Below are positions 11,592 to 51,894 of a DNA stretch of 64,000 bases, in pieces. Both the position numbers and the translations under genes were made by a program. The stretch is from contig JACGWO010000003.1 in the NCBI GenBank assembly GCA_034509735.1, positions 43,446,873 to 43,510,872 on the forward strand, written 5' to 3'. The notes beneath the pieces are model-generated. The model saw only the letters and a program-made list of their open reading frames with translations, ran no database searches and was not told the DNA's origin. This DNA is from Sesamum alatum. Taxonomy: Eukaryota > Streptophyta > Magnoliopsida > Lamiales > Pedaliaceae. How positions within the stretch are numbered: the first letter of the stretch is position 1; the number at the start of each line of letters is the position of its first letter.

Positions 11592-13755
11592 TGTAGCACC
11601 CTCTAACGGCACTACGACTATATCTTCCCTAAATATCACACTTAATGCAAACCCTAATTATATGTATAATTAGGCACATAATGTAGCCCCTGTTGAGTAT
11701 ATATACACATAGTCTCATTATCACAACAAGAATATTTAATATCTCATCCGCAAGATCATATATACATATATATCAAGTACGTCAAAAATGAGACTATTAT
11801 AACTAGTTCACATGCTATTCTCGCCTTTAATTCAAAATGAGACTTCTATTTCTATTTACAAGGAGGAGAAAACTGCATACTGGCCCGACCTGACTGGGAT
11901 GCAAAATGTGGACCTAGCTGTCGTGAGTAGGCACAGCAAAATCTACACCTGAAATTATTAGCAGAGGGATGAGCCTGCAACTCCATAAGTAAATAACCGG
12001 TACCACTATACACGCACCTCAATTATATCAACAAGACAAAGACAAGCAACGTATATAATATAATCAACTTAATCAAAGCACATTTCATTTTATTTCTCCA
12101 CGTAGTCATTTAATAACACGATAACCAATCAAACTTATATTTTCCTAGTTGGCTTACCAAAAAGGTGATATAGTGTTTTTCTCCACCAACTCAACCTCAC
12201 TATTCATTCATATATATACATGAATCCCCTTGACATGCTACACAGGCTCATCAATCTCATTTCGCATCATAGCTCTTTCATTTCACATCATAGCTCTTTC
12301 ATTTCGCATCATAGCTCTTTTCATTTCGCATCATAGCTCTTTTCACATCGCATCATAGCTCTTTTCATTTCATTTTTCCATATAGGCTATTCAACAACAT
12401 CAAGGGGTATTCATATCATAATTACATTCAATTTCCATCACTCCCTCGATTCCACATATCACCGTTCTTGTAAGCCAACTAGCCACATAAAACCACATAG
12501 CAGCATTTTTCACGTACAAGCACATAACACTGGTATCAAACAGCCAATGACATATCTTCCTCATTTCATTTTCACGACATAATCATTTCAAAGTAATCAT
12601 TAACCACTCGTACAGTTCAAAATAGATTAGTCAAGCACGAATTAATCATAGGCTCACATAAAAGTAATATTATCAAGAAATGAAACATATACAAATAATA
12701 CTAATTATTTACGTACACAACGCTAACAGGAAAAAGGAACATATATAAGCAGCACTAATTATTTACTTACCTCGATCTTATACAGATTTAGCTAGCTGAT
12801 ATGAAGTCGTACGATCATCTACTTTATCCCCGTGTCCAATCATAAGGTATAATACGTATAATTAATATCTAGAATGTCAATTCCTAAATAAAATATTAAA
12901 TAGTATTTATATATATATATATTTCATCAATCTCTCAATATTTCATTAAACCCTCCATCCTATTATAACTACCATTCATAATAATAATTCTTGAATTATA
13001 TTTATCTCAAAATATACTTATCTTTACTAAATATAACATTTTCAAATATATTCTATAATATTTCTCAAATAAATTTTTCAACCCGATTAAACTAAGCCAA
13101 TCAATTGTAGAAATTAGTAAATCTAGTAAATTAAGCAGTTTAAGCTATTAATTATAACACCCCTAATTTAATTGAGACATTTAACCAGGCACTAATTATA
13201 AATACTCAAATTCATAAAATTTTCCGGTTAAACACTAAATCGAATAGTATAATTAACATTTAATAAATGCACTAATTATTTAATATTAATATACAATTAA
13301 CTAGAAATTTTAAAATATGCCTTAATTACCTCTTTCGCGGGAGCCGACGAAATGCTCAATTCCACTGCTAATTGGAATTAGGATAAACTTTTTGTCCATT
13401 ATTATATATATATATATATGTAAATTAAAAGTGGGGTGCTTTGTTATAATTTAGATACACGTGGCCCCCCCTAAAAGTGTATCTCCACTTTAGTGATTAT
13501 TATAATTTATATATAATTCTTTTTTTTTTTAATATATATATCATTTCTTTTATTGCTTTCAATAAAATTACAATTTTATACCTCAATTTATAATTTGACC
13601 TCAAGATTTTTTTTTTCGTAAAGCTCCAATTACACCGTTCAAGTCTCAATATAATCATAATTTAATCTATAATATATCTACTAATTAACTAAATTTTTTT
13701 TTTAATGATTATCAATTAACCCCATAATTATGTATAAAAATTTATGGGCGTCACA
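11592..13755 (-). repeat. LTR (5' LTR on the coding strand)
   Basis: 2164 bp, the partner of 4584-6754. It should hold the element's promoter. No TATA box was assigned with confidence because of the many AT tracts. Confidence 0.95.
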
Positions 13756-23900: not shown

Positions 23901-25788
23901 AGATGATAAAGAGATAAAACTAACATGTAAGCTAGTCTCCTACAACAATTACAATAATATGTAGTTTAATTAGCAGTAAAACAGCATTCACAAATACATA
24001 AACAAGCATAAAAAGCGGTATTAAAATTCAATACAGCTAAGGACACAAAGTCAAGCATAATCCAAAGAAAATATATGCACAGCTATGGAAGCCACAGTCA
24101 AATAGGTTGGTTTCTTTTATGTTGATAGTAGCATTCCACAATTTTGCATGTTATTTGATGAGCATTCAATCCACATCCCTCCTAGCATTTCCAATCCAAA
24201 TACTCCTTTCCGTGCAGAGTCAGTACTGCTGAAGTTCATTCATTATTTTTTTTTTAGGAGTCACTATCTTGAGATTTTCCTTGAGTGTCTGCTATTAAAG
24301 AGAACTAACAAAAAAGTTATAAACTAATTACAAGAAATAAGCCTCCTACTTAATTAAAAATTAAATGGAGTATAGATGAAATCATCATTAAGAGCAATTC
24401 TTCCAAAGCATCTCCACCCTTTCAGTTGTTGTGCAGAAAATAACACATAAGTTCCATCAATTCTCAACTGCCTTATGATCAATAAATTACATATGTTTTT
24501 CAGAGAACAGACAATGAAGGGCAAATATGAAATAGAAATAGCATCTACCACTAGGGATCTTATCTACAACTCAGCTATTAATTTGAACCTGAATTATTTC
24601 GTTATCCAAATTTATGCTTCAAATTTAATGTTTTTTAACTGTCGGCATAACTAACCGGAAAAAAGAAAAAAATGGAACAAAAAGACAAAAGACGACCTCT
24701 ATATACGGCGTTTGTATATTTGACCACTTCCTCTAACCAACCTTTCCTAGGAGATCCAGACAACTAAACCAATTCTTACTAATGAAAGTAACCGCCTCAG
24801 AACCACATAAAATGAGATGATTGAATTATTTTGCAGATATGAAACAAAACCATGTAAATGCCATAGAGAATAGAAATATTTGCAACTACCTTACTGATGT
24901 TGGAGACAGGAGTGTTCCTTTCCTGTTGATCTTTCCAACGCGAATAGACACAAGAGGTGCACACAAGCACCTAGCTAGCAGACCAACTTCTGATGGCTCA
25001 AAGTGCTGCTTCATGAACAATAGGTAAGATAACAGTAGAATACAAACCATAAAGCTCAAGAAACGTGAGTGAAGGTTCAAAATCATCCAACAAAGGGTAA
25101 TCATCTACTTAAACAGAAAACAAATTGAGAAAGATGCAATTTAAATTAATTTTCACCCAAACAAACCACTTCCCTTAAACAATACAACTGCACCATCCCA
25201 ATACATCTACTTTCAGATTCTTCACTAGCATAATCCTAAAGTGGTTGACAATCAAAATTTAGAAAAAAAATAAATAAAAAAGTCATGAGATGCAAAAGCA
25301 AACACAATGCAGGGTCTGTTAATGACATTATAAGAACTCCTCTTCAAAAACGGTTCGGACCCCGGCAAAATGACTGTCTCAAGAATAACAAACAAAGAAA
25401 CCACAAAGGATGGGATTTTGAATTGAATGAGTATACATACCTGACTAAGGTGAGCTAGCAGACGACCCTCAGCCACACCAGTTGAGACATTAAGCTTCAG
25501 CAAAGGCTTCAACATCTCATCAGCACGACAGGCCCCCATAACCTGCATATCCAGCGCGCGTATCCATTGTAGAACCCCGTCCTCCCTATCACTGCTTTGT
25601 AGCAGCAGATCTTCATCACCATCCTCCACAAAAACCTCCGTTAACCTCCGCGTAATCGACGAATTCCCGCTGGCCAAAGTTCCTGAACCGCTCGAAGAAA
25701 CATCAATCGATTCCTCACCATCGGAATTTTGATCAACGTCATTCATCCTACGATCGTTAGTGAATTGACGTTCCCCCGGATTAACCAT
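20924..25788 (-). CDS. Conserved-looking plant protein of unknown function, 4 exons, 671 aa
   Basis: Exons: 25441-25788, 24890-25005, 22319-22559 and 20924-22234, all joined by GT-AG introns of 435, 2330 and 84 bp. Phases close exactly (348+116+241+1311 nt), ending in TGA. The ATG at 25788 (MVNPGERQFTND) is the first in frame after an upstream stop. Residues ~15-65 are acidic and Ser-rich. Residues ~66-175 hold conserved-looking segments (LQWIRALDMQVMGACRADE, FEPSEVGLLARCLCAPLVSI). Residues ~176-240 (SGRSFLIKTNGVDSYFWCCE, then HGIELLRKMKDLL) resemble a PH-like fold in pattern only. The C-terminal ~400 residues are Ser/Pro-rich with short conserved-looking motifs and look disordered. I do not recognise a named family. 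Clean splicing and open frames argue for a live gene. Transposons begin ~0.4 kb 5' of the ATG. Confidence 0.85.
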
Positions 25789-26167: not shown

Positions 26168-26176
26168 AGCAATGCG

Positions 26177-26316
26177 GAGTTAATTGCAAAAGTAGTCCCA
26201 TAATACAGGCTCTATTGCAATTTTGGTCCCATACTTTACAGAATAGCCAAAACTAGTCCCGTAATTTAACTTTTTGTTGCAAAACTGATCCCACCGTTAA
26301 CTTTTTAACGGAAAGG
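26177..26316 (+). repeat. Left TIR of element A
   Basis: Inverted copy of 30915-31055. It contains four spaced 'gtccca/gatccca' words. Confidence 0.9.
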
Positions 26317-26390
26317 CTAAAAAAACGTTACTTTTACCTGTAGGGGGGGTTAGTTGATTGGTAGGTAAAGGTTAGTGGGGAGAAATTGGG

Positions 26391-26397
26391 TATAAAA
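26391..26397 (+). promoter_or_regulatory. TATA box of the element A GRF gene
   Basis: The sequence tataaaa sits 75 bp inside the left TIR and 111 bp before the ATG at 26502. This leaves a normal ~80-bp leader. No other TATA-like site lies between the TIR and the ATG. Confidence 0.6.
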
Positions 26398-26501
26398 GGT
26401 GTATTGGAGGAAATAAATTCATTTCCTTGTCTTTCTTCATCTCTCTTGCTATTTTTATCTCAAACTTCATTTTATTTTATTTTTTTTTATTTTGCTGGAA
26501 A

Positions 26502-26867
26502 ATGTCTTCATCTTCAACAACACAAAATCGTCAACGGGTCATGTGCTATTGTGGAGAATTTGCTCGATTGAGGACTTCTTGGACATCCGAAAATCCGGGA
26601 CGAAGATTTTTCTGTTGCTCTAAAGGTATGACTGCCGAAGATTGTGGTTTTTTTTCTTGGGAAGATATACCGATGTGTGCAAGAGCAAAGGAGATAATTC
26701 CTGGTTTATTACGCCGAATAAATCGACAGGAAGGTGAAATTAAAACTCTCAATGATAAGGTGAAGGCTTTGGAGGCGAAGAATGCAAACTTGCAACGACA
26801 AAGGAAGTTATTTCTTATGTTGTTGTTTATTTCTTGGATTCCATTTGTGTTTAAGTTATTTATTTGA
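26502..26867 (+). CDS. GRF zinc-finger / coiled-coil / transmembrane protein encoded by element A
   Basis: This is an intact 121-aa, single-exon frame. Residues ~14-58 form a GRF-type finger: CYCGEFARLRTSW, then NPGRRFFCCSKG and CGFFSWEDIP, giving C, C, C and C ligands plus the GRRF motif. GRF fingers bind single-stranded nucleic acid in APE2, NEIL3 and topoisomerase III. Residues ~72-100 (RRINRQEGEIKTLNDKVKAL) look like a coiled coil. The last ~18 residues (FLMLLFISWIPFVFKLFI) form one hydrophobic span, so the protein is probably tail-anchored. The layout resembles plant proteins of the At4g04775 type. The start is chosen because the 36 upstream codons of the longer frame are low-complexity and follow the TATA box. 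It occupies the mudrB position. Whether it aids transposition is inference. Confidence 0.82.
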   Translation: MSSSSTTQNRQRVMCYCGEFARLRTSWTSENPGRRFFCCSKGMTAEDCGFFSWEDIPMCARAKEIIPGLLRRINRQEGEIKTLNDKVKALEAKNANLQRQRKLFLMLLFISWIPFVFKLFI

Positions 26868-27135
26868 AGGATTGTAATGAACTATTATGTTAGATGTATT
26901 GAACTATGTTGTTTAAATGACCAACCTGTTAATAACATGTTAAATAATGGACATCAATCCTTCATCCAAAAACTTGCCAAAAAATGGCCAACTTGCCATA
27001 GCACCAAAGTTAGCAATGTATATCCAAAAACATACAACCAAAAGCACTGTAAATTCAAAACTAATTGCAATAGTTTAATAAGCAATTCATCCAAAAATTA
27101 AACCCAACAGTTTACAACCACCCTCACAACAAATT

Positions 27136-30100
27136 TCATGCCTTTTTTTTCCCTTGAGACTTGTCTCTTGAAGCCTTCTTTGAAGCATTTTGTGCTGAAA
27201 CTGCAGCCTCCAAATGTGACATTGTAACAAACTTTTTGCTCCTTTGGATGAAAACTGGAAAAGAAGGGCCTTCAGTGGGTGTATGGGTGGACTTGATTAT
27301 CCCATGTGGTTCATCAGTTGCATCCTTTGATCTTGGAGGAATGAATGTAGGGTTTGGTGGGTTGCTTACCTGCTTAAACACAGTGATTAGTACAGATTTA
27401 TTTGAAAATAAGTAACTTTAAGTGAGTCAAGAAAATGTACAGTTTTGAAGGTTTGTGGCCTGTTTTCTCCAGAATTTGAAGGCCCACTGCTGGTCATATC
27501 CACCAACTGCAATAAATTAAATACAAGTTAAATGTTGCTGAATTCAAAATATCAATAAAATGTACATAATATAATAATATCACTTGCCCTCTTAATGGCA
27601 TTGGTAACAGGAACAAGGTGGGGCATCCCTGACCTTATTCTTTTCCTTGCCTGCAAAAATATTAAAAGTGGTCAATAAAGAATCAATAAGTGCACAACAA
27701 ACAATACAAGACATGTGAGCATACAGGTGCTGGTGCAGGAATCAATTTTGTTTGATTTAAGTCTTGTGATTCCTCTTGTGTTGCTGATGGCACATCTTCA
27801 GCAACAAGAATCTCTTCAGCAACAGGGGCTGGTGCAGGAATCTCTTCAGCAACAGGGGCTGGTTCAGGTATCTCTTCAGCAACAGGGAACTCTTCAGCAG
27901 GGAACTCTTCAGCAAATTTCCTCCATGTACATCCCTTCCTGTTATGCCCTTCCCCCCCACAGAACTTGCAATGAACTTTCCATGTTTGTCTTTTCATTTT
28001 AACTTCACTGTTTGCACCTCTTTTGTCCTTCCTATTCCTTCTTAGTTGTTCATCTGGCTCAAGCCTTCTTGCTCTAGCTGGTCTTCCCTTTTTTCTTCCA
28101 AAGTTTGGTGGAATAGGTGGGATGTAACCTGTTTTCTCCCACAAGCTAGACCCATCCATTGGCATAATTGCAGGCTGATAAACCTTCCTATATTGCTCAA
28201 CCGTGTAGTACTCACTCACAAAATCTTCAGGGTTTAACCTTTGACAACATATTGCACTTATGCCATGTTTACAGGGAATTCCACTTAATTGCCATCTTCT
28301 ACATGAACAGGTTTGTGCCCTCAGATCAACAGAATATCTGCTCCCATCATAGCAAGAAATCTCATATGCAAAGTCTGTTGATTTGATTGGTATGCAATCC
28401 CCCATCTTCCCCATGTTTTTTTCAATGATTTTCTGTATCTTAGGACATAGCTTTTTTCCTGCCCATTTGTCTTCACATTTATCTCTGTTTTGTTGTAACC
28501 TTGTCATGAGAAACTCTCTAATCCACTCCAGCATGGTCAGTATAGGCTTTTCCCTAGCCTCTAGAATGGTGCTATTGAAAGATTCACACACATTATTCAG
28601 CAAAATATCACATTTTGGCCATGTATTAAAATGTGATCTACTCCATTGTGAAGCAGGTTTATCTTTCAACCATTCTAAGCATAAAGGGTCCAACATCCCA
28701 ATTTCTTTCATACAACAATCAAACTCTGAAATTGTACTTGCTCTAGCTGCATTCCATAACCCCCTTTTAAATGCTAAGCCTTTGAAACCAGCAGATTTCA
28801 TGTTCCCGTGTAGGTGCCTGACACAAAACCTGTTGTCGGCACCTGGGAATACTTTCTCAAATGCAGGAACAAGACCCTTTTGTTTATCACTAATGAAAGA
28901 CATCATTCCTCTCTATCATAAGGTCTTCTTTTAGTAGCATCAAGAACCACTCCCATGCAATCTTTGTTTCACTAGTTACTATTGCATATGCAATTGGAAA
29001 CAATGCATTATTTGGGTCTATTGAAACTGCACACAGTAGAACCCCTTTATGTGGACCCTTTAAGTGACACCCGTCTACACCAATTATTGGTCTACACCCA
29101 GCCAAAAAACCCTGTTTTAAGGCTTTAAAACAAACATAAAATCTTTCAAATTTTCTGCTCCCCCCTTCAGCAACATCATCACTCAAATTCAGGATGACAG
29201 TTGTTCCTGGATTTTTTCTTCTTAAAGCACTAGCATAATCCCATAGTCTGGAGTATTGTTCATCAGAATTACCTTCAATTGCTTTTATGGCTTTTCTCTT
29301 TGCTCTGTAAGCTTGGTACTTAGACACATTGCACTTTATATCCTTAATGACATCATTTCTGAAGCCCTTAACACCCCTCTTAGGATTAGACCTAAAAAAC
29401 CTCTTCATACTTCTTAGAAAGCCATTCTGCTTTAACATTATTCACATGAAAGCTTCTCCCACATGTGTGATTAGGGTTATATTCTCTGATTTGAAATGAA
29501 GCTTCATTCTTTACTTTCAATGCATTAATGTGCCATTCACAAGCTTCTTCTTTACATCTGGCATATATCCTTCTGTTGTCATTTTTTGTAATTTTTAGAT
29601 TCCTGCAAGTCTTGATTGCATGAGACTGTACAGCTTCTTTAAACTCCTTTTTATTACTGAAAATCATCCCCATCACAAAATCAGGTGCAAACTTATCACT
29701 GGGATTGAATATAGAATAGCTTTTATCCCTCACCCCATCATCTGATTCTTTACCACTATCAAATTCATCACTACTCCCTAATGTATCAGACTCCTCTCCC
29801 TCAGATGATTCTTCATGTTCAGTCCCATCCCCTTCATTTGGCCCTGTCCACTCTACATCTTTATCAACATGTTTTTCATAGAGTGCATCATCAGTTCCCT
29901 CACTATCTCCATCATCTAAGTTGTAGTCACTGTCAAACAATTCACTTTCTGTCTCATCTCCCCCATCTACCCTGTTCTCTGTATGTTCATGTTGTGATGA
30001 TACTGTTTTAGCAAGAAGATACAGGGTAATTTCAGGCCCTTTTCCATCCACTAACTGCCACAGTTTAGTTTCAAATCTTATCTCTCTGAATTTATGTAGA

Positions 30101-30661
30101 GAGCATCAATTCTGTAGTATTTTACATTCTCATTATACCCTATTTCTGCTGCAAATTGTTTCAAATCTTTCATTGAAAGTGTTGACAGATCAACACAATC
30201 AAAAATAGACACCATCCCCCCATCATATGTTGCTGTAGGTTGATCAATTAAATTACCCCCATGGTGAATTTTAAAAGTTACAAGGCCTGTGCCATCCCCT
30301 GGTTTAAAAAAAAATTAAAAAAATCCAACATTACCAACAGCAAGAAAGGACCACAATATACTACAGAAAATGGGACCACAACACAGACAAAAAACGGAAT
30401 CATTCATCCAATATCATTCATTTCACAAAACAGACAAAAATGCAAGTACATCAAAATGATTGAAGCATGCTAAAAATACAACAAGAAATACAATAAAATA
30501 CAACGAAACACAACAAATACAACAAGAAATTACAATAAAGTTCAACAAAATACAAGAAAAATACAGGCTTCATCTCTTCTCAACAAAATAAAAAAAATGA
30601 AAAACCTTCACATACCGTAATTTGGTGTTGGACATTCCAGTAATTCGCGAGGCCGTAACAT
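27136..30661 (-). pseudogene. MuDR-type transposase of element A (five exons, frame-broken)
   Basis: Predicted exons: 30616-30661, 27725-30298, 27588-27650 (GC donor), 27441-27506 and 27136-27369, all phase-compatible, ~990 aa. Exon 2 begins with a PB1-like N-terminal region (VTFKIHHGG), then an acidic stretch. The MuDR DNA-binding region (NDNRRIYARCKEEACEWHI) follows. The DDE core has IIGVDGCHLKG, FISDKQKGL and NNVCESFNS, the usual catalytic positions. A SWIM finger (CSCRRWQLSGIPCKH) and a CCHC knuckle (CKFCGGEGHNRKGC) come next, then a Pro/Glu repeat tail. Three lesions are seen: near 30100, in a T run near 29395, and near 28905. Each looks like a small indel, so the copy is nonfunctional unless these are assembly errors. 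Confidence 0.88.
27795..27905 (-). repeat. 30-bp coding repeat in the transposase tail
   Basis: Two full and several partial copies of a unit encoding AEEIPAPAPV. Length is a multiple of three, so the frame is kept. Confidence 0.8.
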
Positions 30662-30846
30662 CTTTTCTCGAAAATGAGAACTTGTGCAGCTGCTCCTCTC
30701 TTCTTCGCGTCAAAATCTATGAATTCTTCACAAGGGGATTAGGGATTAGGGTTTTCTATTTTGAGGGAAATCTTCATCTGATTTCTCTCTCCCCGTTTTT
30801 TTTACTTTCATTCCGTAATTTTTTTTTTTTTTACTAATTACCGTTC

Positions 30847-30864
30847 AACCGGCTGCAGCCGGTT
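30847..30864. repeat. 18-bp perfect palindrome next to the right TIR of element A
   Basis: aaccggctgcagccggtt equals its own reverse complement. It lies about 50 bp inside the right TIR, upstream of the transposase start. No equivalent is seen near the left TIR. Confidence 0.85.
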
Positions 30865-30893
30865 ACAAGAGGTAAATAGCCAGTGACGCTAAC

Positions 30894-30916
30894 GGCCACG
30901 TGCGAAGCACGTGGCC
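30894..30916. repeat. Hairpin with 10-bp stem at the inner edge of the right TIR
   Basis: ggccacgtgc and gcacgtggcc are separated by gaa. The stem contains two CACGTG G-box cores, a plant bZIP/bHLH binding site, in the transposase promoter region. Confidence 0.8.
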
Positions 30917-31055
30917 TTTCCGTTAAAAAGTTAACGGTGGGATCAGTTTTTGCAACAAAAAGTTAAATTACAGGACTAGTTTTGGCTATTCTGTAAAGTA
31001 TGGGACCAAAATTGCAATGGGGCCTGTATTATGGGACTACTTTTGCAATTAACTC
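30915..31055 (-). repeat. Right TIR of element A
   Basis: Inverted copy of 26177-26316 ending in gcaattaactc, directly followed by agcaatgcg. Confidence 0.9.
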
Positions 31056-31064
31056 AGCAATGCG
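31056..31064. repeat. Shared target-site copy between elements A and B
   Basis: agcaatgcg serves as the right target duplication of A and the left one of B. Further copies are at 26168-26176, 35798-35806 and 37315-37323. Confidence 0.92.
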
Positions 31065-31303
31065 GGTAAAATTATTTAAAAAATGTAAAAAAAAAGAATT
31101 AAAATTGGTGTGTTTCCATACCAATTTCGTTTTTAAGCGGAAACGGGATTTGTAACCCCGTCTGTTGAAGAGATAGGGTTACAAAGTCCGTTTTATGAGA
31201 AGCATGTCAGCATTTATGCTGACTTCTATGTCAGCATCTATGCTACAGCATAAATGCTGTATTTATCCTTCACTTTTCAAGTGAAGGTCCAACCTTCACT
31301 TGG

Positions 31304-31310
31304 CTATATA
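31304..31310 (+). promoter_or_regulatory. TATA box of the element B PMD gene
   Basis: ctatataag about 100 bp upstream of the ATG at 31406, followed by a gaggggaggg leader and CT-rich sequence typical of plant 5' UTRs. Confidence 0.6.
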
Positions 31311-31405
31311 AGGGGAGGGGGAGGGGAGAGTGAATTGTTAACATCAATTCACTCCTTCTCCTTTTGTTCTTCACTCCTTCTCCTTTTCTTCTTCAGTTTT
31401 TTATT

Positions 31406-33470
31406 ATGGCGAATTTTGGTCCACATGATAATAGTGTATTATATGATCAAAGAAATCATCGTTCTGAAGATGTGTCCGGAAATGAGGACACACACTTAAT
31501 AATACGGCGTGGCGATACTAGTTTTTTTTGAAATATTCAAATAATCTCGCGCCATCCTCGAGTTCTACAAGCACTATATCACATGGGTTTTTTGGGTGTT
31601 TTTAGGTGTGGTCGTATTGAAATTGATCAACACCTCATTACCGCATTAATAGAGAGATGGCGGCCCGAAACTCATACTTTTCATTTTCCGATAGGGGAGG
31701 CCACTATCACACAACAGGACATCACCATTATCTGGCACCTTTCCAGTGGGCGGTTAATCCTATCACAGGAGTAGATTTCACGACGCTCAATTCCATAATG
31801 GCAGGAATATTGCTCTAACTTATTGGGGTTTATTCCGCCGGAGGATACATTTAAGCACTCCCAGATAAGACTACCCGTCTTACATGAATGGCTAGTGGTC
31901 AACACTTGTGATAATGACAGTCCCTAGGAGGAAGTATTGCAAGAGGCACATGTATGTGCTTTGTGCATTCTTGGTGGATTGTTGTGTCCTGATGCCACCG
32001 GAAACTGTGTGTCCTATTGTATTGCAACACATGGAGGATATTGAAGATGACCCCCCTAATTGGGGTAGCGGTGTTGGGATATATGTACAGGGAGCTTTGT
32101 ACGGCGAGTCAGCGCGGTAAAATAAACATAGGTGGGGCTATGCAACTGCTACAAATATGGGCATGGTCCCGTATTACTATAATAGCACCTATTCGGTCTG
32201 ATGATGTGTTAGAGATATGTCCAACCATCATTGATGACGAAAATGTTCTACCTCTCCCGCCATATGCCGCAAGGTATACATAATTCATTTATACATTTAA
32301 TCATAAAATATTTCAATTTTTATTATTTTAATTCTATGTGGTATTTGTTATTTTTGTAGGTGGTCTCGGCATATATCCCAGACGCACACTGCACATAATG
32401 CATTGCGTGTTATCAGGGCTATGTTTGACAGGATGCAAGAAAATGAGGTAAGTGGCTCATCACATTTTCACGTTTAACATAGATTATCATATTTAATGAA
32501 ATAATTTAATTGTGCAGTTTATTTGGAACCCGTATGATGGAAATGATCCGGGTGTCAGTTCATTGCCCGTATATGCCGGCCACGTGCCATGGAACATTAG
32601 ATGCCCCTTGATTCATTATGCAATTGTTGAGGTGCATCATGTAGAACGAGTTCTCCGTCAGTTTGAAATGCTTCAAGACATCCCCCCGAATCCACTAGTA
32701 AGTGAAAGACGATTACATTCCATCACAAGACGGGGTCGATAAGATGCAGATTGGGCTTCGTTCCATCAACACTATATTGCACAATGGAAAGACGTTCAAT
32801 CAATATTGGTAGTGAGACCCGAAATCACGTATGGCCGTGGGACAGTGCCAGATTATATGAACTGGTATCACCACATAACAAGGGTCCAAATTTCTCATAC
32901 GGAAGTTCCACCCGGATATCGTCCTGCTAATCCAAGTGATTGGGAATATATAGTAAATCGTAACTTGTCTATTTTGTTGCTATTTAAAGACGTTCAATAT
33001 ATAATTTATTTTTTTATGTACGTTGCAAGCTCACAGATTGGAACAACTGATGATCGAATACGACAATGTCCGAGGACTACGTGATGGCCTACATGAACTG
33101 GTCAATTATTCACGTGCACGGTACCCTGTTGTCGGGGAGGGCCGACTACCAATTATGTTCCAAATGATGAGGCAGCCCATCTACTTCGTATCATCAAACA
33201 GGCCCATCTACTTCATATCATCAAACAGGCCCTATGATGACACATACGCCATCAAATGTCTGGCAAGCTAATCCATCATACAGTCAAGCACAATTTCAAA
33301 ATATTAATGAGGAGCTACGGAGACATTACGGGATATCACCTGTTTCGTTTGACTTAAACAGTACTAGCGAGCCCTCTCAACCGGTTCAGGACGATAGGCC
33401 CCGACGGGCCTTGTCAATCGTTTGGCGAGCCCTCTCAACTGTTTGGGCCTTGTCAATCCTTTGCAGCTAA
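31406..33470 (+). pseudogene. Plant mobile domain (PMD) gene of element B, broken and 3'-truncated
   Basis: The ATG at 31406 opens MANFGPHDNSVLYDQRNHRS. The frame stops at about 31530 (DTSFF then TGA) and resumes with HPRVLQALYHMGFLGVFRCG and the family hallmark LITALIERWRPETHTFHFPI...TITQQDITIIW. A further break follows near 31740. Later blocks are KINIGGAMQLLQIWAWSRI (32110-32170), an exon at 32361-32448 (HTAHNALRVIRAMFDRMQ) and one from 32518 (FIWNPYDGNDPGV...VPWNIRCPLIHYAIVE), with an in-frame TAA near 32741. Introns are GT-AG. PMD is the PF10536 domain of MAIN/MAIL1, also known from transposons. The usual C-terminal part seen at 50965-51612 is missing here. Confidence 0.82.
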
Positions 33471-33479
33471 TTATATGCT

Positions 33480-35342
33480 TCCTCATTCAAGCCCCTAATT
33501 TCCTTCATTATTCTGTCAAACTACGGCTCATCTGCTCTGCACCGGCTCTCTCCAACAAAGATCTTTCAATTGAACATTGTTGAACTTCTTGTTAAGTTAG
33601 AACACACGTGCCGTAAACAAAACCTATGTACCCCACGAGGAAACTTGAATGCTGGAACATGGTTGACGGCATTGATCAACCCACTATGTCGGTCAGAAAT
33701 GAGGCAAATTCGGTCCTCTTCACCTATCAGTAGATGTTTGGCAAGCATTTTCAAGAACCATCGCCAACTATCCAGTGATTCTTCATCTACAAGTGCGAAG
33801 GTCAACGACAGTACTTGTTGATTTGCATCCATACCAACTGCCACTAATAACTTATGTCGGTACTTTGTGTACAAATGCGTTCCGTCTACACTTATAACAT
33901 TTCGGCAATAGCGGAATCCCTCAATGCACTGTCTGAAAGCCCAAAATACATAGTTCAATATTTTAATCCCCTGCCTTTTAGTGTCCAAATGCGACCACTC
34001 CACAACAGTCCCCGGGTTATATTTTTGCAATGCAGCCATAAATCGAGGCAACTTCTGTACCGAGCTTTTCCACGTTCCATAAACCTGTTCTCTAGCTGCC
34101 TGCAAGGATTGCCAAGCCTTCTAATAAGTGATTTCAAATCCAAAGCGATCTTTTACACTTTGTTGGACATATTCTATGTCGTAACCAGGGTCTTGACGAA
34201 CCATACCCAATAAATGTGTCGCAATCATACCCTTACCCAAGTTACGATGAGAAACAGAAATCTCATTCATTAAGCATGTATGCGGCCCAACATATTGGGT
34301 AATCCTAAATAAAACCCATTTTAGACTTCAGTATACCACGTAACATCCAGCTGCACCCAGTCTCCGCTTCATATTTGCACGCAACTTTCCACAATTTGGG
34401 TTTGCTCTCAACTACGCGGTATTCTAGTCTTGCTCAGCGCACGGAGAAATCCTGTACACTTGCAATCAAGTGGTCCTTGCTTTTGAAAATCATACCTGCA
34501 CCGAGCTCTCCACAATTAGAGTCATAAAAATCCCCCCATTTGCCAGTAGGGATATCTATGGAGTCAACAGGCACCTCGGGATGTGTCATTGTGAAGAATG
34601 GAACAACAGGATATAGAGAAGGAGGTTCAGATGCAATAGGTATGTTCAAATCAATTGCTTGTTGTTGTTCATCTGTCGACTCAAAACTACTGCCTCCAAG
34701 CACATCCAACATAACTGGAATGCTGACTTCATCGTCATTTTCAAGATCCTCGTCAGCTTGAATATCTTCTTCAACCTCATCCGGTTCTGAGTTCATCCGA
34801 TCATCATATAAGCAACTATCTGTTTCGGGGTCGCATTTAAATCGTCACTGTCGTCATAGTGGTATGTGGATAGACCTGCATGATCTTCATTTAGCCCAAA
34901 CCTATCCATAGCCTCAGTAACTGCTGGCAAGTTGGGCGCATCTTGTGTTAACATAGTCATATATGCGCCCCAATCACCAACAAATGGGTCATCTTATACG
35001 ATATTCTCACAAAGCATCTCTGTTTCAACAAAAATATCAACATACGAATTTCCACTGGTGGGACTGAAAAAATTGAACATCTTCATCTGTCTTAATCAGC
35101 AACACCGTCTCCCGCCACCGGCCACCACAACAGCTTGTGTACTTAAAATATATTTGTAACTTATAATCAACCCTACGGAGTCTAAGTAGTTCGAACAAAA
35201 TCGACTCTAATTCAACAAATGTAGTACTACGACATATTTTCATAAATCGGAAAGCCGGACGATCATAACCCACACAATCATATGACTCAATTCGTTGACC
35301 TCCATCGTATATAACAATATCAATATTGTTTTGATCTGTCAT
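33480..35342 (-). pseudogene. MULE transposase of element B, broken and 3'-truncated
   Basis: The start is the ATG at 35342 (MTDQNNIDIVIYDGG) after a TATA-like tatatata near 35535 in the right TIR-proximal leader. The N-terminal region includes TTFVELESILFELLRLRR and RETVLLIKTDEDVQFF. An acidic segment around 34450-34796 ends in GAGMIFKSKDHLIASVQDFS, the start of the MuDR DNA-binding domain. The core at 33566-34105 keeps VISVDGTHLYTKYRHKLLVA (first catalytic D), DSWRWFLKML and CLISDRHSGLINAV (second D). The third acidic residue, the SWIM finger and the C-terminus are deleted. Several stops lie between 34110 and 34430, so it cannot encode an active enzyme. Confidence 0.82.
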
Positions 35343-35797
35343 ATCTTCACAACAAAATATAAAAAAAATCATCACAACAAAAACAAGCAAAATAAAATTT
35401 ATATAACGTAAAATTTTAAGAAAACAACTTACTGTAATCGCAACTCGCGCTCCAAACACTGAAAATTTTCCTCTCCACACACACTGAAAATATTTTCTTA
35501 TCCGAATGTAAGAGATAAGCTCGGACTGGTTTGCATATATATACACAAACGCATGCATTAAAGGGGAGATGTCTCGCATGCATGGAAGGCTGGTTTTTGA
35601 CCAGCCTTCACGGACTTTTGGAGAGACGGGGTTTGAAGTGCTCAGGCAGATGCCTGACAGACATTTCATAAAACGGGCTTTGTAACCCCGTCTCTTGAAG
35701 AGACGGGGTCACAAACCCCATTTTCGCTTAAAAGCAAAATTGGTGTGGAAACACACCAATTTCGAATTTTTTTTTATATTTTTTAAATAATTTTACC

Positions 35798-35806
35798 AGC
35801 AATGCG
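35798..35806. repeat. Shared target-site copy between elements B and C
   Basis: agcaatgcg, the right flank of B and the left flank of C. Confidence 0.92.
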
Positions 35807-35834
35807 GGCTTATTTATATTTTTAATTCAAAAAT

Positions 35835-35985
35835 TTTAAAAAAATAATATTTAATTAAAATATATAATAATAATAAAGAAAAAAAATAATAAATTAACAT
35901 TTAATTAAAATATATAATAATAATAAAGAAAAAAATAATAAATTAATATTTAATTAAAATATATAATAATAATAATAAGAAAAGT
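35835..35985. repeat. Three-copy ~50-bp AT-rich tandem repeat in the left arm of C
   Basis: Three copies of taatatttaattaaaatata followed by an (aat)n/aagaaaa segment. The right arm lacks the expansion, so it arose after the element formed. Confidence 0.7.
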
Positions 35986-36267
35986 CGAACTCTACGAGTT
36001 TGACTTCACAATTTGTTTAATTTTTTTTATTTTATATTGAAGTCGAATTCACGAAATTCAACTTGAAGTCGAATTCGTCTAACTTTTTTAATTTCTACTT
36101 CAGTTTCAATTCTATTACATAATTTTTCTATTTTATTTTATTATTTTAATAATATAAAATATAATAATTTTTTAATTTATTATAATTATAAATTTAAATA
36201 ATAATTAAATTTTTTAATAAATTTAATATTGACACCAAAAAAATTAAAATAATTACAATAATTAAAA

Positions 36268-36400
36268 ATGACTGCCCGTCCCATGAGTACGTCAGTGCCG
36301 TTGGCATTCTGTATTGGCTCATTTTGATCATTATCATCATTATCAGTATTAATGTGTAACCGATTTGATGATGTTGTAGCACTTGACTCCACATAATAAG
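36268..36400 (-). pseudogene. PMD gene 3' end, left arm of element C
   Basis: The minus strand reads like 51470-51605: a serine/threonine-rich segment, NTDNDDNDQNEPIQNANGTD, then the former C-terminus. The mirrored copy lies at 36830-36960 on plus. Confidence 0.7.
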
Positions 36401-36414
36401 CTTGTGGTTGACCT

Positions 36415-36830
36415 TGGCCTTGTCATGAGTCAACCAGGCCAACCACAACCTTATTATAATAGGTTATCTTGACTTTGGTCTTGTCATGAGTCAACCAAAC
36501 CAACCAAAAAGGCTTATTATAACAGGTTATCTTGACATTGGCCTTGTCATGAGTCAACCAAGCCAACCACGGGCTTATTTATAACAAGGTATCTTGACGA
36601 CCTTTGGCCTTGTTATGAGTCAACCAAGCCAACCACAAGCTTATTGCAACATGTTATCTTGACCTTGGCATTGTCATGAGTCAACCAAGCTAACCACAAG
36701 CTTATTATAACAGGTTATCTTGACATTGGCCTTGTCATGAGTCAACCAAGCCAACCACAAGCTTATTATGGACATGTTAATCTTGACCTCGGCCTTGTCG
36801 TGAGTCAACCAAGCCAACCAAAAGCTTATT
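36415..36830. repeat. 60-bp minisatellite derived from PMD coding sequence
   Basis: About seven units of cttgtcatgagtcaaccaag, ccaaccacaagcttatta and caggttatcttgacattgg. They match the segment at 51338-51398 that encodes QPYYGQVDLDLGLSTSQT. The period is 60 bp, or 20 codons. Units differ by several substitutions and short indels. Confidence 0.85.
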
Positions 36831-36960
36831 ATGTGGAGTCAAGTGCTACAACATCATCAAATCAGTTGCATATTAATACCGATAATGATGATAATAATTA
36901 AAATGAGCCAATACAGAATGCCAACGGCATCGACGCACTCGTGGACGGGCAGTCATTTTT
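36830..36960 (+). pseudogene. PMD gene 3' end, right arm of element C
   Basis: The plus-strand counterpart of 36268-36400, again ending near the ggacgggcagtcattttt block that follows the C-terminus in the copy at 51590-51610. Confidence 0.7.
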
Positions 36961-37314
36961 AATAATTCTAATTATTCTAATTTTTTTTATCAATATTAAA
37001 TTTATTAAAAAAATTACTATTTAAATTTATAATAATAATGAATTAAAAAATTATTACATATTATATTATTAAAATTTAAAAAATAAAATAAAAAAAGTAT
37101 GTAATAGAATTGAAACAAAAGTAAGAATTTAAAAAAATTAGACTTCTGCTGAAGTCGAATTTGTTGAATTCTTCAAATCAAATGATGTGAATTCGATTTC
37201 AATATAAAATTTAAAAAAATTGAGTTCAACTTTTCTTATTATTATTATATATTTTAATTAAATACTAATTTTGTTATTTTTTTTTAAATTTTAAATTAAA
37301 AATAAAAATAAGCC

Positions 37315-37777
37315 AGCAATGCGTAGCTGTGGGGCCCACTGGATGTCAGTGGGGCCCACAAAGAGCAAATGCAACAAACTTCTCGTCCAGTCCATGAACT
37401 TAAAAAGTTTGACAATTTAAGAAGAGGTCGAGGTTCGTTTTTATAAATTTTATAAAATGAAACATTTATTTAAATTAATGATGGAGGCATGAATACTATA
37501 AAAAGGTGTAGTATTTATATTTTATTAACAATTTACGCACACGTGATGTTTGATCAAATTAAAAAATATATAATAAGAATGATAATATACAATAATTAAT
37601 GTATTTAAATTACATATTTTGATTAATTTTAATATATGACCGAATTTAGATCAACGTTTAGTAGATCATTAACTATATATTTATTAATTATGTGATCTAA
37701 AATAATATTATAGAAAAAAAATTAAGTAAATATATTAAAATTAATTTACAAAAACACTTCATGGATAGCGTAATTAT
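37315..37777. other. Host flank right of the stacked elements, then AT-rich DNA
   Basis: 37315-37323 is the last agcaatgcg. From 37324 the sequence (tagctgtggggcccactgga) is probably the original continuation of the DNA that ends at 26176. No gene was seen. Confidence 0.5.
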
Positions 37778-41958: not shown

Positions 41959-42010
41959 TAAATTCATTGGCCCGTTTATATTTTTTATTATATCAAAAAA
42001 TAATTATACA

Positions 42011-42030
42011 TGTACCACCGAAGCGGTACA
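42011..42030. repeat. Subterminal hairpin, left end of D
   Basis: tgtaccaccgaagcggtaca, an imperfect version of the hairpin at 44675-44696. Confidence 0.7.
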
Positions 42031-42399
42031 TATTGTAAGAATGTGATCGGTCGCAAGCCGGGCTAGCGACGGACCCTTTTTTTTTTTTTTTTTTTAGCCG
42101 GTCGCTACCCAAGCTCGTGATCGCCAGCTACCGCTAGTCGCTACCTCAGGCAGCGACTGTTGGTCATTGCCTGGGGTAGCGATCTCTGTATTTTTTTTTA
42201 AATTTTTTTTTTTGTCAATTCGTATATTATGATAATTAAAAAAAATTATTATATACTTTAATATAAAATAAAAATAATTTATTTTATGATAATTTAAAAA
42301 AATTATAATTATAAAAATTTAAAATTAGAATTAATACACTAAAAAATTACATAAAAATGTGTATTCAAGTATTTGTATATTATTTTGCCATCTACGACC

Positions 42400-43280
42400 C
42401 TGCCTTGGGACATTACTTTGACTCAAAGGAGCTTGATTTTGTCGTGATTGACTGCGAATTTGTTGCCTTGCACGAGCTTGTGCCCAATCCATTTCATTAG
42501 GAATGCAAGTACTTTGGTGTCGACCCTGACGAGTTGAGTTACGACGGGTATCGTAGTGGACCAATTGAAAATTTGAAATATCCTAATAGTCTTCCGCCAT
42601 TATCAGTTGGAAAGAATTAGAATATGTCATTCGGTAAGGCACTAAGCATAATATTGCTTAACCATTGATGCAACGTTAAGCCTATATGCAGCGCATACCT
42701 TTTGAGTATGAGAGCATGAAATTCCAAATTGATTCCATTTATCACATGAACGCTCATGCGTTGCAATTTTTACAATGTGAGTGTTACACCGCTGTCCATA
42801 ATAGCGTCTTGTAACCACAGAGGTAGTCTATTCAATTTGATCGAATATCATCACCACATGCTCGATAGATCTGGCCGGACCACCATTGGAACAATTTTTA
42901 TGCATAGTCCATCCACGGTTGATTGTTGCTTATCATTGTAGTACTCTTCGCCAACCTCTCACGAAAATAATGGATTGAACGGTTAAAAGTTATTTCCACA
43001 ATAACAGTCACAGAAGGCGGCGTGCTCCTTTTAAAACCCGATTGATGCAATCTGACATGTTGGTGGTCAGAATACCGCATCGCCATCCACCGTCATGAGA
43101 AGCTGTCCACTTTTCCTTATTTATTTGCTCAAGTCAGTGGTGTTCTTCTAGTTTTATACTCTTAATCTCGTCCATAGTGCGATTAAATGTTCTTTATTTT
43201 TGAAAACCATATCCACATCGAGTTTGCCTTGATTTGTATCATAATATTTTGCGTACTTCAAAGTTGGGACATCGATTGAG
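42400..43280 (-). pseudogene. MULE transposase remnants of element D
   Basis: From the N-terminal side, an IMIQIKANSMWIWFSKIKNI segment near 43205-43260 precedes a join to a later part. That later part reads SDHQHVRLHQSGFKRSTPP and VEITFNRSIHYFRERLAK across a frame change, the block following the DDE core. A SWIM-like finger is legible near 42690-42765 (CDKWNQFGISCSH). A Gln/Arg-rich tail ends near 42400. The catalytic core is absent, so the deletion removed the DDE domain. Confidence 0.72.
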
Positions 43281-43582
43281 TCCGCATGTATCTCCAGAAA
43301 TGTTTGCTCAAGGAAAGGTATACACGATAAAACATATGAGCATTGTCTGTTGTTGGTATAGAAGAAGGTTGAATTGGTGTTTGTGTGTTGATGGCATACC
43401 TTGTGTATTGGGGGCTAATGTCTGGGCTATCACATTTACGTTAATATTATCCTTGGGATCCAGGGGGGATATTGGAAATTCTACTTTATCGGGCTCGGAA
43501 CCTCCATGAGTAGTGTGCAAAACTGTCACCTTCCGGATCATTTGCAACTTCATCATTGTCAAAAATCCCATCCGACTCGTGA

Positions 43583-44375
43583 TAGTTTTGTGAGGTCATG
43601 GCCCCTGTGCAGTGAATCCCAACATGCAGCATCGTGGCAAGTGGTGGTACGTTATCTCATAAACATACTTCTTTTTAATCATATTTTTTTTCTTTCCACA
43701 CGTTTAAAATTACACACTTATAATATATTCGGCTCACTTTAGCTTGACCAGATGGAAACGCTTCGAATAAGTTGTGAAACTACACCCGATCAACTCGAGG
43801 GCATATCGTCAAGCAATGGCGACGCATTTTGGAAATATATCAAAATGTTGTTCAAATTGCAACAAATCAACGAGTGGAACAAGATATGGCCCCTTAAAAT
43901 CCATTGCCACAAGATGATGTTCTGTCCACATCCCACAGACAAACACGAAGTCGTAGTAGGAGATCAAGAGATATACCTGAGGTTGACATAGCTGGGCCAT
44001 CTACTATGCATACATCTCAATTTTTTTACTGAAGACTGCCACGTGCTTGAACCGCCTTAACAGGATGATTGGTTTCAATCAACTCTTTACATGCCAGTAC
44101 ATACAGAAGGTTATTACACAAATATTGAACTTGACCTTGGTCTTGGCATCAATCAAACATATTCACTGGTACATAATGTTTCACCTATCCAATTTCCATC
44201 ATGGAGTGCAGATCATATCCAATAGAGTCGACCTCTACAGCATCATCAAGTCGGTTTCAAATTCAGGTCGATTATGATGATCAAGAACAAAATGAACCAG
44301 CAAGTCCGAAAATACGACGACCTAGGTGACAACGACAAAGACGTAATTATGGGCAGACGGACATTATTAAATTTT
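43583..44375 (+). pseudogene. PMD gene 3' part, element D
   Basis: It matches the arrangement of 50965-51612 with many breaks. An exon after an acceptor near 43750 encodes the pre-C-terminal region. The ELDLGLGINQTYS-like block near 44130-44165 aligns with VDLDLGLSTSQTYA. The segment near 44235-44340 (tcatcaagtcggtttcaaat...) aligns with the C-terminal coding region. Stops and frameshifts throughout make it a relic. Confidence 0.7.
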
Positions 44376-44674
44376 ATAATTATATTTTTTATGTAAATTT
44401 TCAAGCTTATTAGTTATTGCAAAAGAAACTTAAAATTGTAATTACATTATTGTATTGTAATAAATTAATTATAATTAGCTTGAAATAATAAAATAAGATT
44501 TAATTAGTAAATTAAAATATAAATTAACAATAATACACTAAATTAAATTTTAAAAAAAATAAATTTAAAAAAAAAGGGGGTCGCTACCTCAGCTCGGGGC
44601 CGGCAGCCACCGACGAATAAAAAAATTAAAAAAAAATGGTCGGTCGGCTTGCGACCGGTTACATTTTTTACAAT

Positions 44675-44696
44675 GTGTACCGCTTCGGCGGTACAC
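44675..44696. repeat. Subterminal hairpin, right end of D
   Basis: gtgtaccgc and gcggtacac enclose ttcg, a 9-bp perfect stem with a TTCG loop. Confidence 0.85.
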
Positions 44697-44744
44697 GTAT
44701 AATTTTTTTTATATAATAAAAATATAAATTGGCCTAAATTCATT

Positions 44745-46112: not shown

Positions 46113-46481
46113 GAGAAAATTGCAATTTTGATCTCAAAGTACATGATGGTTTGCAAAATTAGTCCCATATTTCTTAAAATAGTCAATATTAGTCCCATAC
46201 TTTAGGAAACATTGCAAAGTTAATCCCACTGTAAAAAAGTTATAACTTTGGGACTAATCTTGCAACATTTGGGACAAACTTTGGAACTAATTTTGCAACG
46301 TTTTGCTAAAATATGGGATTAATTTTGCAATATTTTTCTAAAGTGTGGGACTAATATTGCTATGCTGGGACTAACTTTGCAATGTTTTCCTAAAGTATGG
46401 GACTAATGTTGGCTATTTCAAAAAGTATGGGACTAATATTCAAATCACCCTATATTTTGGGACTGAAATTGCAATTTCCTC
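46113..46481. mobile_element. MULE-type MITE, 369 bp
   Basis: The ends are gagaaaattgcaattt and aaattgcaatttcctc, with long inverted similarity (repeated 'tattagtcccata' words). The perfect 10-bp direct repeat gtcgttgtta is at 46103-46112 and 46482-46491. It resembles the TIR of element A in style. Confidence 0.82.
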
Positions 46482-50798: not shown

Positions 50799-50964
50799 TA
50801 AATATAAAAATGAGCTCCCAACCTGCTAGTCTAAAAACAAAACGAAAATAGGCGAAAACAAAAGGCCCGTCTCAATGGAACGTGAGTTGCCAAATGCATT
50901 TTAAAATTGGTATTACACCCATTTTTCTCTTAGATTTAAATTCATTATTTTAAAATTGGTGCAG

Positions 50965-51612
50965 GAGCAATATGCAGAGGCCCTTCATCTAAGTGTTCAA
51001 CCTCCACCAACCAATTTCGAAAAGGTTTTGCAAATGCATCAGCGGTATATTATCGGAATGATTGAACTTCGTGAAATGCTTTCTCGTTTTCCGAGGGATA
51101 ATCAGCCCGAAGAACAAGCAGCGCCACATGATAATGCTCCATCTACGTCCCACAGACAAAGGAGAAGCAGTAGCAGAATGTCTACAAGTTCACTTAGAGG
51201 TGATGATACTATTGGGGCAGATATAGTTGGTCCATCCACAGTGCATACACCTCTAAATGTATATCAAGATTGCTACGTGCCTCAACTGCCCCAACAAAGT
51301 GATTGGTTTGATTCAGCTCTATACATACCAAGCCAACAACCTTATTATGGACAGGTTGATCTTGACCTTGGCCTTAGCACGAGTCAAACATATGCACCAG
51401 AATATAACATCTCACCAATTCTATTTCCAGCATTTGGTGCATATCGTGATTATGGAGAGTCTAGTTCTACAACATCAACAAGTCGGTTACATATGAATGC
51501 AGATAATGATGATAATGTTGAAGATGAACTAATACAAAATATGGGTGAAGAAATAAGAAGACCTCGGCGCCAACGGCACCGACGCACTTGTGGGACGGGC
51601 GGTCATTTTTAA
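50965..51612 (+). pseudogene. Last exon of a MULE-borne PMD gene
   Basis: A splice acceptor (attggtgcag) is followed by 215 open codons and a stop. It begins EQYAEALHLSVQPPPTNFEK and contains a coiled region (HQRYIIGMIELREMLSRF), a Ser-rich linker and QPYYGQVDLDLGLSTSQT. It ends with basic RRPRRQRHRRTCGTGGHF, the typical C-terminus of transposon PMD proteins. The frame is intact, but the upstream exons with the PMD domain are missing, cut off near the Helitron at 50798. It served as the reference for recognising the degenerate copies in elements C and D. Confidence 0.75.
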
Positions 51613-51766: not shown

Positions 51767-51894
51767 TTAAAAAAAAAGAAAAAGTTGAAGTCGAACTCCA
51801 TGGAGTTCGACTTTAACCATTCGTGTTATATATATTATATTATATTTATTTTTATTATTTTTAATTTTTTTAATATTAAATAAATAAATAAGCC

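What the first reader, a model, noticed from the sequence alone, without database searches (positions are those of the whole stretch)
26168..37323. Three different Mutator-type elements stacked on the same 9-bp target
Elements A (26177-31055), B (31065-35797) and C (35807-37314) have three distinct TIR sequences. Yet all four junctions carry exactly agcaatgcg (26168, 31056, 35798, 37315), with no extra base between neighbours. Each element therefore has a perfect 9-bp target duplication shared with the next. Chance reuse of the same 9 bp twice is very unlikely. Two explanations fit: strong preference for the edge of an existing MULE, where the duplicated 9 bp is used again, or capture as a composite unit. 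If the site is a hotspot, it lies ~0.4 kb from a host start codon, and Mutator elements are known to prefer the 5' regions of genes.
Basis: seen in the sequence. Interest (0 to 1): 0.88.

Follow-up and report, generated by a model that had tools for sequence, protein, structure and literature searches.

The report
Three jumping genes share one landing site
Three unrelated plant jumping genes sit end to end on one 9-letter stretch in a gene's promoter, most likely because that spot was hit repeatedly and each landing copies the spot; in the other copies examined in the same genome, no second clear pile-up was found.

Summary
C is a coding-free long-TIR element of a third mobile family.

The A-B and B-C junction patterns each occur once, and A-A and B-B patterns not at all, so the array does not move as a composite. 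In 22 A-family flanks (4.0-4.8 kb) and 10 B-family flanks (1.5 kb) no convincing stack was found. Of 82 other family ends, one B end may touch a degraded B TIR. A strong general preference for MULE edges is not supported.

Best explanation: three successive ordinary insertions into one promoter hotspot, each copying the 9 bp and so leaving the target intact. The site lies 380 bp from a start codon and about 110 bp from a TATA-like box, beside two GTGGGGCCCAC motifs.

A loose end: 4 of 5 other C copies with both termini found show 10-bp duplications, but C here has 9, exactly B's unit, so a resident-guided mechanism stays open. Insertion order and an empty allele could not be tested.

The parts
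26168..26176 (+). 9-bp target copy 1 (host / A)
   Evidence: AGCAATGCG
26177..31055 (+). Element A, 4879 bp, TIRs starting GAGTTAATTGC
   Evidence: TIR pair 97.9% over 141 aligned bases; relatives elsewhere in the genome
26427..26867 (+). A: GRF zinc-finger ORF, convergent to the transposase ORFs
   Evidence: PF06839 E=2.2e-13
27683..30105 (-). A: Mutator transposase remnant in three frames (DBD, MULE domain, SWIM)
   Evidence: PF03108 E=6.5e-14, PF10551 E=1.3e-6, PF04434 E=5.1e-8; relatives in Sesamum
31056..31064 (+). 9-bp target copy 2 (A / B)
   Evidence: A-B junction pattern found once in the genome
31065..35797 (+). Element B, 4733 bp, TIRs starting GGTAAAATTATTT
   Evidence: TIR pair 87.7%; relatives elsewhere
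31532..32739 (+). B: plant mobile domain (PMD) gene pieces, convergent to the transposase
   Evidence: PF10536 E=2.2e-18 and 1.2e-8
33566..34105 (-). B: MULE transposase catalytic-domain ORF; no SWIM domain found in the ORFs scanned
   Evidence: PF10551 E=8.2e-21; relatives in Sesamum
35798..35806 (+). 9-bp target copy 3 (B / C)
   Evidence: B-C junction pattern found once in the genome
35807..37314 (+). Element C, 1508 bp, long foldback-like TIRs starting GGCTTATTT, no ORF of 100 aa or more
   Evidence: the exact 20-bp left terminus occurs 13 times in the genome
36408..36832 (+). C: about 7 tandem copies of a ~61-bp unit
   Evidence: related to the ORF at 50905-51612
37315..37323 (+). 9-bp target copy 4 (C / host)
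37329..37359 (+). two GTGGGGCCCAC motifs in the host flank, 6-36 bp beyond the last target copy
   Evidence: that these resemble TCP sites is recalled
25255..25788 (-). ORF with ATG at 25788, taken as the 5' exon of the neighbouring host gene (inferred; no Pfam hit)
   Evidence: one full match and one 74% match elsewhere in the genome

Best explanation
The array arose from three separate cut-and-paste insertions, by three different Mutator-like families, into the same 9-bp target upstream of a host gene. Shown: four identical target copies, three unrelated TIR types, transposase remnants in A and B, a third mobile family for C, and no second A-B or B-C junction in the genome. Inferred: the site is a local hotspot set by promoter context (open chromatin, TATA-like box about 110 bp away) rather than by the 9-mer. 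Because each insertion duplicates the target without destroying it, every target copy remains available to the next element. The order of insertion is not shown; any of the six orders fits.
For: Exact four-fold 9-mer at the junctions only. Each element has its own family elsewhere, mostly with its own target duplications (A; B; C). A-B and B-C junction patterns are each unique in 527.7 Mb. Uniform insertion does not give this: the table expects 8e-6 triple stacks genome-wide for 10,000 insertions in 350 Mb and 8e-4 if only a tenth of that is usable (it reaches 2.2 only in its extreme cell, 30,000 insertions into 3.5 Mb). In one search, six insertions shared one site three-fold in 0 of 100,000 runs with 64,000 or 6,400 usable positions, and in 0.03% of runs with 640. 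The site is promoter-proximal. Precedent: hotspots with identical RescueMu insertion sites in independent maize grids (PMC545602, passages read).
Against: No second accession or species was available, so an empty or singly occupied allele was not seen; the hotspot itself is inferred from this one locus. The host 13-mer fits the published maize Mu consensus only 4 of 8, the commonest value in the window (consensus from PMC2774946). C's duplication is 9 bp here, although 4 of the 5 other C copies with both termini found show 10 bp and the fifth none. One B end elsewhere may adjoin a degraded B TIR, which would favour edge targeting.
Confidence: 0.58

Rival explanations
1. Edge targeting: a resident MULE attracts the next one to its own target duplication, for example because its TIR ends or bound transposase present that 9 bp as a preferred target.
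For: Both internal junctions reuse a resident's duplication exactly. C, whose other copies with a visible duplication show 10 bp (4 of 5 two-ended copies), has here exactly B's 9-bp unit, as if the unit were imposed by the neighbour. Of 82 other family ends, one (B end at C79:44989298) has, 10 bp beyond it, a 16/20 match to B's TIR start and a 34-bp, 85% match overall (E=1.9e-5); the terminal GG is not kept and no partner TIR was found within 2.5 kb. I raised this rival from 0.18 to 0.20 for it, and lowered the best explanation from 0.60 to 0.58.
Against: No convincing stack at 22 flanks of 11 other A-family copies (two borderline hits where about 1.5 are expected from 41 of 600 random starts; only 9 of the 22 flanks are long enough for a neighbour of B's size) or at 10 flanks of 5 other B copies (1.5 kb each). 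No A-A or B-B junction patterns. The C-C pattern hit 20 sites, whose near-constant spacer marks a dispersed repeat. The other 81 ends reach 13/20 or less; 13/20 or more is seen at 264 of 6000 random starts. In print, coding MULEs seldom lie in DNA transposons: 9 events in maize (2%) and 19 in rice (4%) (PMC3903597, passages read).
Confidence: 0.2
2. Recombinational assembly: the same hotspot was hit on different haplotypes, and the occupied alleles were later joined through the shared 9 bp during repair of a transposon-induced break.
For: Would give the same final sequence. MULE excision depends on the flanking duplications: adding them raised Muta1 excision about 7-fold (8 bp) and 3-fold (9 bp) in yeast (PMC5225508, passages read).
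Against: Needs the same three hits at one site plus joining events with 9 bp of homology; nothing in the sequence requires it.
Confidence: 0.12
3. Composite unit that moves as one.
For: Three elements without spacing.
Against: The outer TIRs belong to different families; the junction patterns are unique in the genome; the families occur apart elsewhere.
Confidence: 0.02
4. Chance without any hotspot, or an assembly artefact.
For: Doubles are expected by chance at large copy number (table). The assembly was not checked against reads.
Against: Triples are not expected except under extreme insertion numbers. An assembler would have to join three elements through 9-bp overlaps.
Confidence: 0.08

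Closest known systems
SaTar arrays (microsatellite-targeted non-autonomous MULEs, guayule and rice; PMC5907723)
   Same: Un-nested, end-to-end arrays of unrelated MULE families.
   Different: Joined through microsatellites, often without clean duplications; the authors state that their copies with duplications in low-copy DNA are not assembled into such arrays (passages read). Here the linker is one complex 9-bp target and two of the members carry transposase remnants.
Maize Mu/RescueMu insertion hotspots (PMC545602, PMC2774946)
   Same: 9-bp duplications, preference for genes and 5' regions, identical sites hit independently.
   Different: Those are Mu elements with highly similar TIRs, hit in separate plants; here three unrelated TIR families occupy one chromosome in series (passages read).
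MULEs with multiple TIRs (PMC3310237)
   Same: Extra TIRs in tandem; the A family itself seems to have such members.
   Different: Those have no recognisable duplication at the inner TIR, and the inner and outer TIRs are similar to each other (passages read).

Membership tests
Mutator-like elements (A) | long TIRs | tested here: met
   141 bp, 97.9%
Mutator-like elements (A) | 8-11 bp target duplication | tested here: met
   9 bp exact; relatives 9 or 10 bp, several imperfect or not seen
Mutator-like elements (A) | MURA-type transposase | tested here: met
   DBD_Tnp_Mut, MULE and SWIM domains, coding region split over three frames
Mutator-like elements (B) | long TIRs | tested here: met
   about 149 bp, 87.7%
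Mutator-like elements (B) | 8-11 bp target duplication | tested here: met
   9 bp here and in 9 of 10 other two-ended copies, two of these with one mismatch and one readable as 10
Mutator-like elements (B) | MURA-type transposase | tested here: met
   MULE catalytic domain E=8.2e-21; no SWIM domain in the ORFs scanned
Mutator-like elements (C) | long TIRs and 8-11 bp target duplication | tested here: met
   arms 88.7%; 9 bp here, 10 bp in 4 of 5 other copies with both termini found
Mutator-like elements (C) | transposase coded by the element or by a relative with the same ends | tested here: inconclusive
   no ORF of 100 aa or more in C; kinship to an ORF-bearing element ending at 51894, no Pfam hit in that ORF
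SaTar-type array | elements linked through microsatellites | tested here: not met
   all four links are AGCAATGCG

The most novel reading that the evidence does not exclude
A resident MULE's target duplication can impose the target of an incoming, unrelated MULE: the newcomer cuts exactly at the two borders of the resident's 9-bp unit, even when (as for C) its family usually duplicates 10 bp. Stacks would then grow by edge-guided insertion at rare, permissive promoter sites.
Probability: 0.12. Interest if true: 0.75.

Novelty: new variant of a known kind. Interest (0 to 1): 0.45.

Why it matters
How Mutator-type transposases choose targets is not settled: maize hotspots exist without a strong motif (PMC545602, passages read). 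A single base-precise site used by three families on one chromosome separates context from transposase identity, and a promoter that keeps regenerating its own target shows how such elements can pile up without interrupting one another.

Tried and rejected
Target motif: the host 13-mer matches the maize SW::SWNNNNNWS::WS pattern 4 of 8, the commonest value in the window. The 9-mer has 3 of 4 dyad-symmetric pairs, as have 7% of window 9-mers. Nine B-family targets elsewhere are all different and all poorer in G+C than AGCAATGCG, so the 9-mer is not an obvious B preference.

Dating by TIRs: at an assumed 7e-9 per site per year the TIR differences would be 1.5 (A), 9.6 (B) and 8.8 (C) My, but four unchanged 9-mers over the last two spans have probability about 0.1. 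TIR divergence is probably older than insertion, so I give no order.

Paper searches for a precedent (30 of 59 papers listed; with no paper; with five, 15 of 92 listed) showed no report of a multi-family MULE stack on one non-microsatellite target; they cover open-licence PMC text only. Searches (P elements; Sesamum) gave listings I did not use. Passages of PMC2775673, PMC9319602, PMC9168764 and PMC3169594 were not relevant to stacking; PMC139471 is not held. IMG/VR was scanned for an exact 24-base piece of A's TIR: no match.

C-C pattern: 20 sites, a near-constant 8-bp spacer in 19 and 11 bp in one; taken as a dispersed repeat, not stacks.

Rows dropped or weak: A-family elements at C81:9172492 and C77:29170661 lack one terminus and were left out of the stack scan. 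A-family copies at C83:31238378 and C83:31264580 share 100 of 100 flanking bases, so they are one insertion duplicated; only the first is among the 11. The C copy at C78:42928834-42933959 is an uncertain pairing. Three C copies had one terminus only. The searches scored 40 of 123 (A), 40 of 113 (B) and 40 of 400 (C) candidates, so family sizes are lower bounds; junction patterns were exact matches, so degraded junctions would be missed.

Full report
What is there. The window is C79:43446873-43510872 of a 527.7-Mb assembly. The proteins point to a relative of sesame: the best hit of a C2 protein at 52463-53380 is 92% identical, in Sesamum angolense, and the listed hits of both transposase pieces are mostly from Sesamum. 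In the tables, C77 to C89 are thirteen contigs of 22-75 Mb; that this fits a Sesamum-like n = 13 is recalled.

AGCAATGCG occurs four times in the window, at 26168, 31056, 35798 and 37315, and nowhere else in it. Between these copies lie A (4879 bp), B (4733 bp) and C (1508 bp), with no spare base.

Element A carries a Mutator-type transposase on the minus strand, with DNA-binding, catalytic and SWIM zinc-finger domains spread over three reading frames, and a GRF zinc-finger ORF on the plus strand running towards it. Element B carries a MULE catalytic-domain ORF on the minus strand and pieces of a plant-mobile-domain gene on the plus strand, again convergent. Element C has no ORF of 100 aa or more; it is made of long foldback-like arms around about seven copies of a 61-bp unit. 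That unit is related to an ORF at 50905-51612 inside another element of the window whose right end, AAATAAGCC at 51894, matches C's terminus; its left end was not found. The three TIRs are not clearly related to one another.

Is it more than chance? A scan of the window for exact 8-11-bp repeats bracketing inverted ends gave A, B and C, an inner or shifted reading of A and of B, and one palindromic case. A looser scan gave nine rows, among them three MULE-like elements with unrelated 10-bp duplications (TTTCAAAATA, TAAATTCATT, GTCGTTGTTA) and two rows starting in a tandem repeat that I set aside; 40 shuffles gave 0 to 2 rows. With six insertions placed evenly in 64 kb, three never shared a site in 100,000 runs; they do so in 1% of runs if about 100 positions are usable. 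Genome-wide, uniform insertion of 10,000 elements into 350 Mb gives an expected 8e-6 triple stacks, and 8e-4 if a tenth of that is usable. Some cause beyond chance is needed.

Genome tests. The A-TIR search listed 64 matches (40 of 123 candidates scored), the B-TIR search 60 rows (40 of 113) and the C-arm search 44 rows (40 of 400). The A-B junction pattern, with any 8-11 bases between, occurs once in the genome, in this window; so does B-C. A-A and B-B patterns do not occur. A C-C pattern hit 20 places, but 19 have a nearly constant 8-bp spacer and one a related 11-bp spacer, which marks a dispersed repeat. These patterns allow no mismatch in the termini. The array is therefore not a mobile composite, as far as exact copies go.

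Single copies elsewhere behave normally. Of ten other two-ended B copies, nine have 9-bp duplications (two of these with one mismatch, one readable as 10), all different and all poorer in G+C than AGCAATGCG; one has none. A-family copies have 9- or 10-bp duplications, several imperfect or not seen. Of five other C copies with both ends found, four have perfect 10-bp duplications; the fifth, an uncertain pairing, has none.

I then asked whether these copies have another TIR element sitting on their own duplication. For 11 A-family copies, 22 flanks of 4.0-4.8 kb were scanned; only 9 are long enough for a neighbour of B's size. Two gave borderline hits with poor duplications, no more than the detector's background (41 of 600 random starts), and the positive controls in the window were found. 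Ten flanks of 1.5 kb from five B copies gave nothing. Finally, 82 other ends (32 A, 38 B, 12 C) were scored for an A, B or C TIR start 7-12 bases beyond. The window's two junctions score 20 of 20. One B end, C79:44989298, scores 16, with a 34-bp, 85% match to B's TIR (E=1.9e-5); the terminal GG is not kept, and neither a partner TIR nor more of A, B or C was found in 2.5 kb. Only 8 of 6000 random starts reach 16, so across 82 ends chance is possible but a degraded B remnant is too. All others reach 13 or less, as do most random starts. This one case goes mildly against my reading.

How it most likely works. Each insertion of a Mutator-type element duplicates its target. Three hits by three families at one spot give exactly what is seen. 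Why this spot? It lies 380 bp upstream of the ATG of an ORF taken as a host gene and about 110 bp upstream of a TATA-like box, next to two GTGGGGCCCAC motifs now separated from that promoter by 11 kb (that such motifs are TCP sites is recalled). Maize Mu elements prefer gene 5' regions and open chromatin, and identical sites were recovered in independent grids with no strong motif (PMC2774946 and PMC545602, passages read). The 9-mer is not a good consensus match. I therefore favour local context over sequence. The hotspot itself is inferred; no second allele was seen, and the only other match to the host flank is a 74% stretch covering bases 116-536 of the 913-base query.

What does not fit. 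C's relatives duplicate 10 bp where a duplication is visible, but here the duplication is 9 bp and coincides with B's unit. A single-base loss or normal variation in length could explain this; the A family varies between 9 and 10, and Muta1 makes 8 or 9 (PMC5225508, passages read). It is also what one would expect if the resident's duplication guided the newcomer. I keep that as the novel reading, at low probability.

Compared with what is known. The nearest published structure that I found is the SaTar array of guayule and rice: un-nested, end-to-end MULEs of different families, but joined by microsatellites, with the statement that copies with duplications in low-copy DNA are not assembled into such arrays (PMC5907723, passages read). 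MULEs with multiple TIRs lack a recognisable duplication at the inner TIR (PMC3310237, passages read). The present case is a new variant: three families in series on one complex 9-bp target. My searches for a precedent cover open-licence papers only.

Noticed in passing
G000 C82:2564096-2565496, C80:33681964-33683403, C77:9723344-9724694 and six similar places: Nine short A-family elements (about 0.7-1.4 kb) show two TIR matches in tandem at each end, like the multiple-TIR MULEs of PMC3310237; two of the nine (both on C83) have identical flanks over 100 bases.
   Followed up: partly
G000 C79:44989298 (L080, L139): B-family end with a 34-bp, 85% match to B's TIR starting about 10 bp beyond it; possibly a degraded B-B stack.
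   Followed up: partly
26177-31055 and 31065-35797: Both coding elements pair a transposase with a second, convergent gene of a different kind: a GRF zinc finger in A, a plant mobile domain in B.
   Followed up: partly
46113-46481: A 369-bp MITE with A-like ends and a perfect 10-bp duplication GTCGTTGTTA.
   Followed up: yes
41969-44734: A 2.8-kb MULE-like element with a 10-bp duplication TAAATTCATT and about 140-bp TIRs; apparently decayed.
   Followed up: partly
3486-4215: Inverted-repeat element with a palindromic TTTAGCTAAA at its edges.
   Followed up: no
1199-3481: Five tandem copies of a 454-bp unit, 96% matching.
   Followed up: no
5249-5363 and 12257-12371; 6028-6071 and 13032-13075: Tandem repeats with identical consensus, about 7 kb apart, on both sides of retroelement-like ORFs at 7037-11336; they may lie in its long terminal repeats.
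   Followed up: no
G000 C36: AGCAATGCG recurs about every 535 bp along much of contig C36, so part of its 1108 genome hits come from a tandem array.
   Followed up: no
G000, 20 places listed: A dispersed repeat AAATAAGCC-CAAATTCA-GGCTTATTT whose arms equal C's 9-bp terminus.
   Followed up: no
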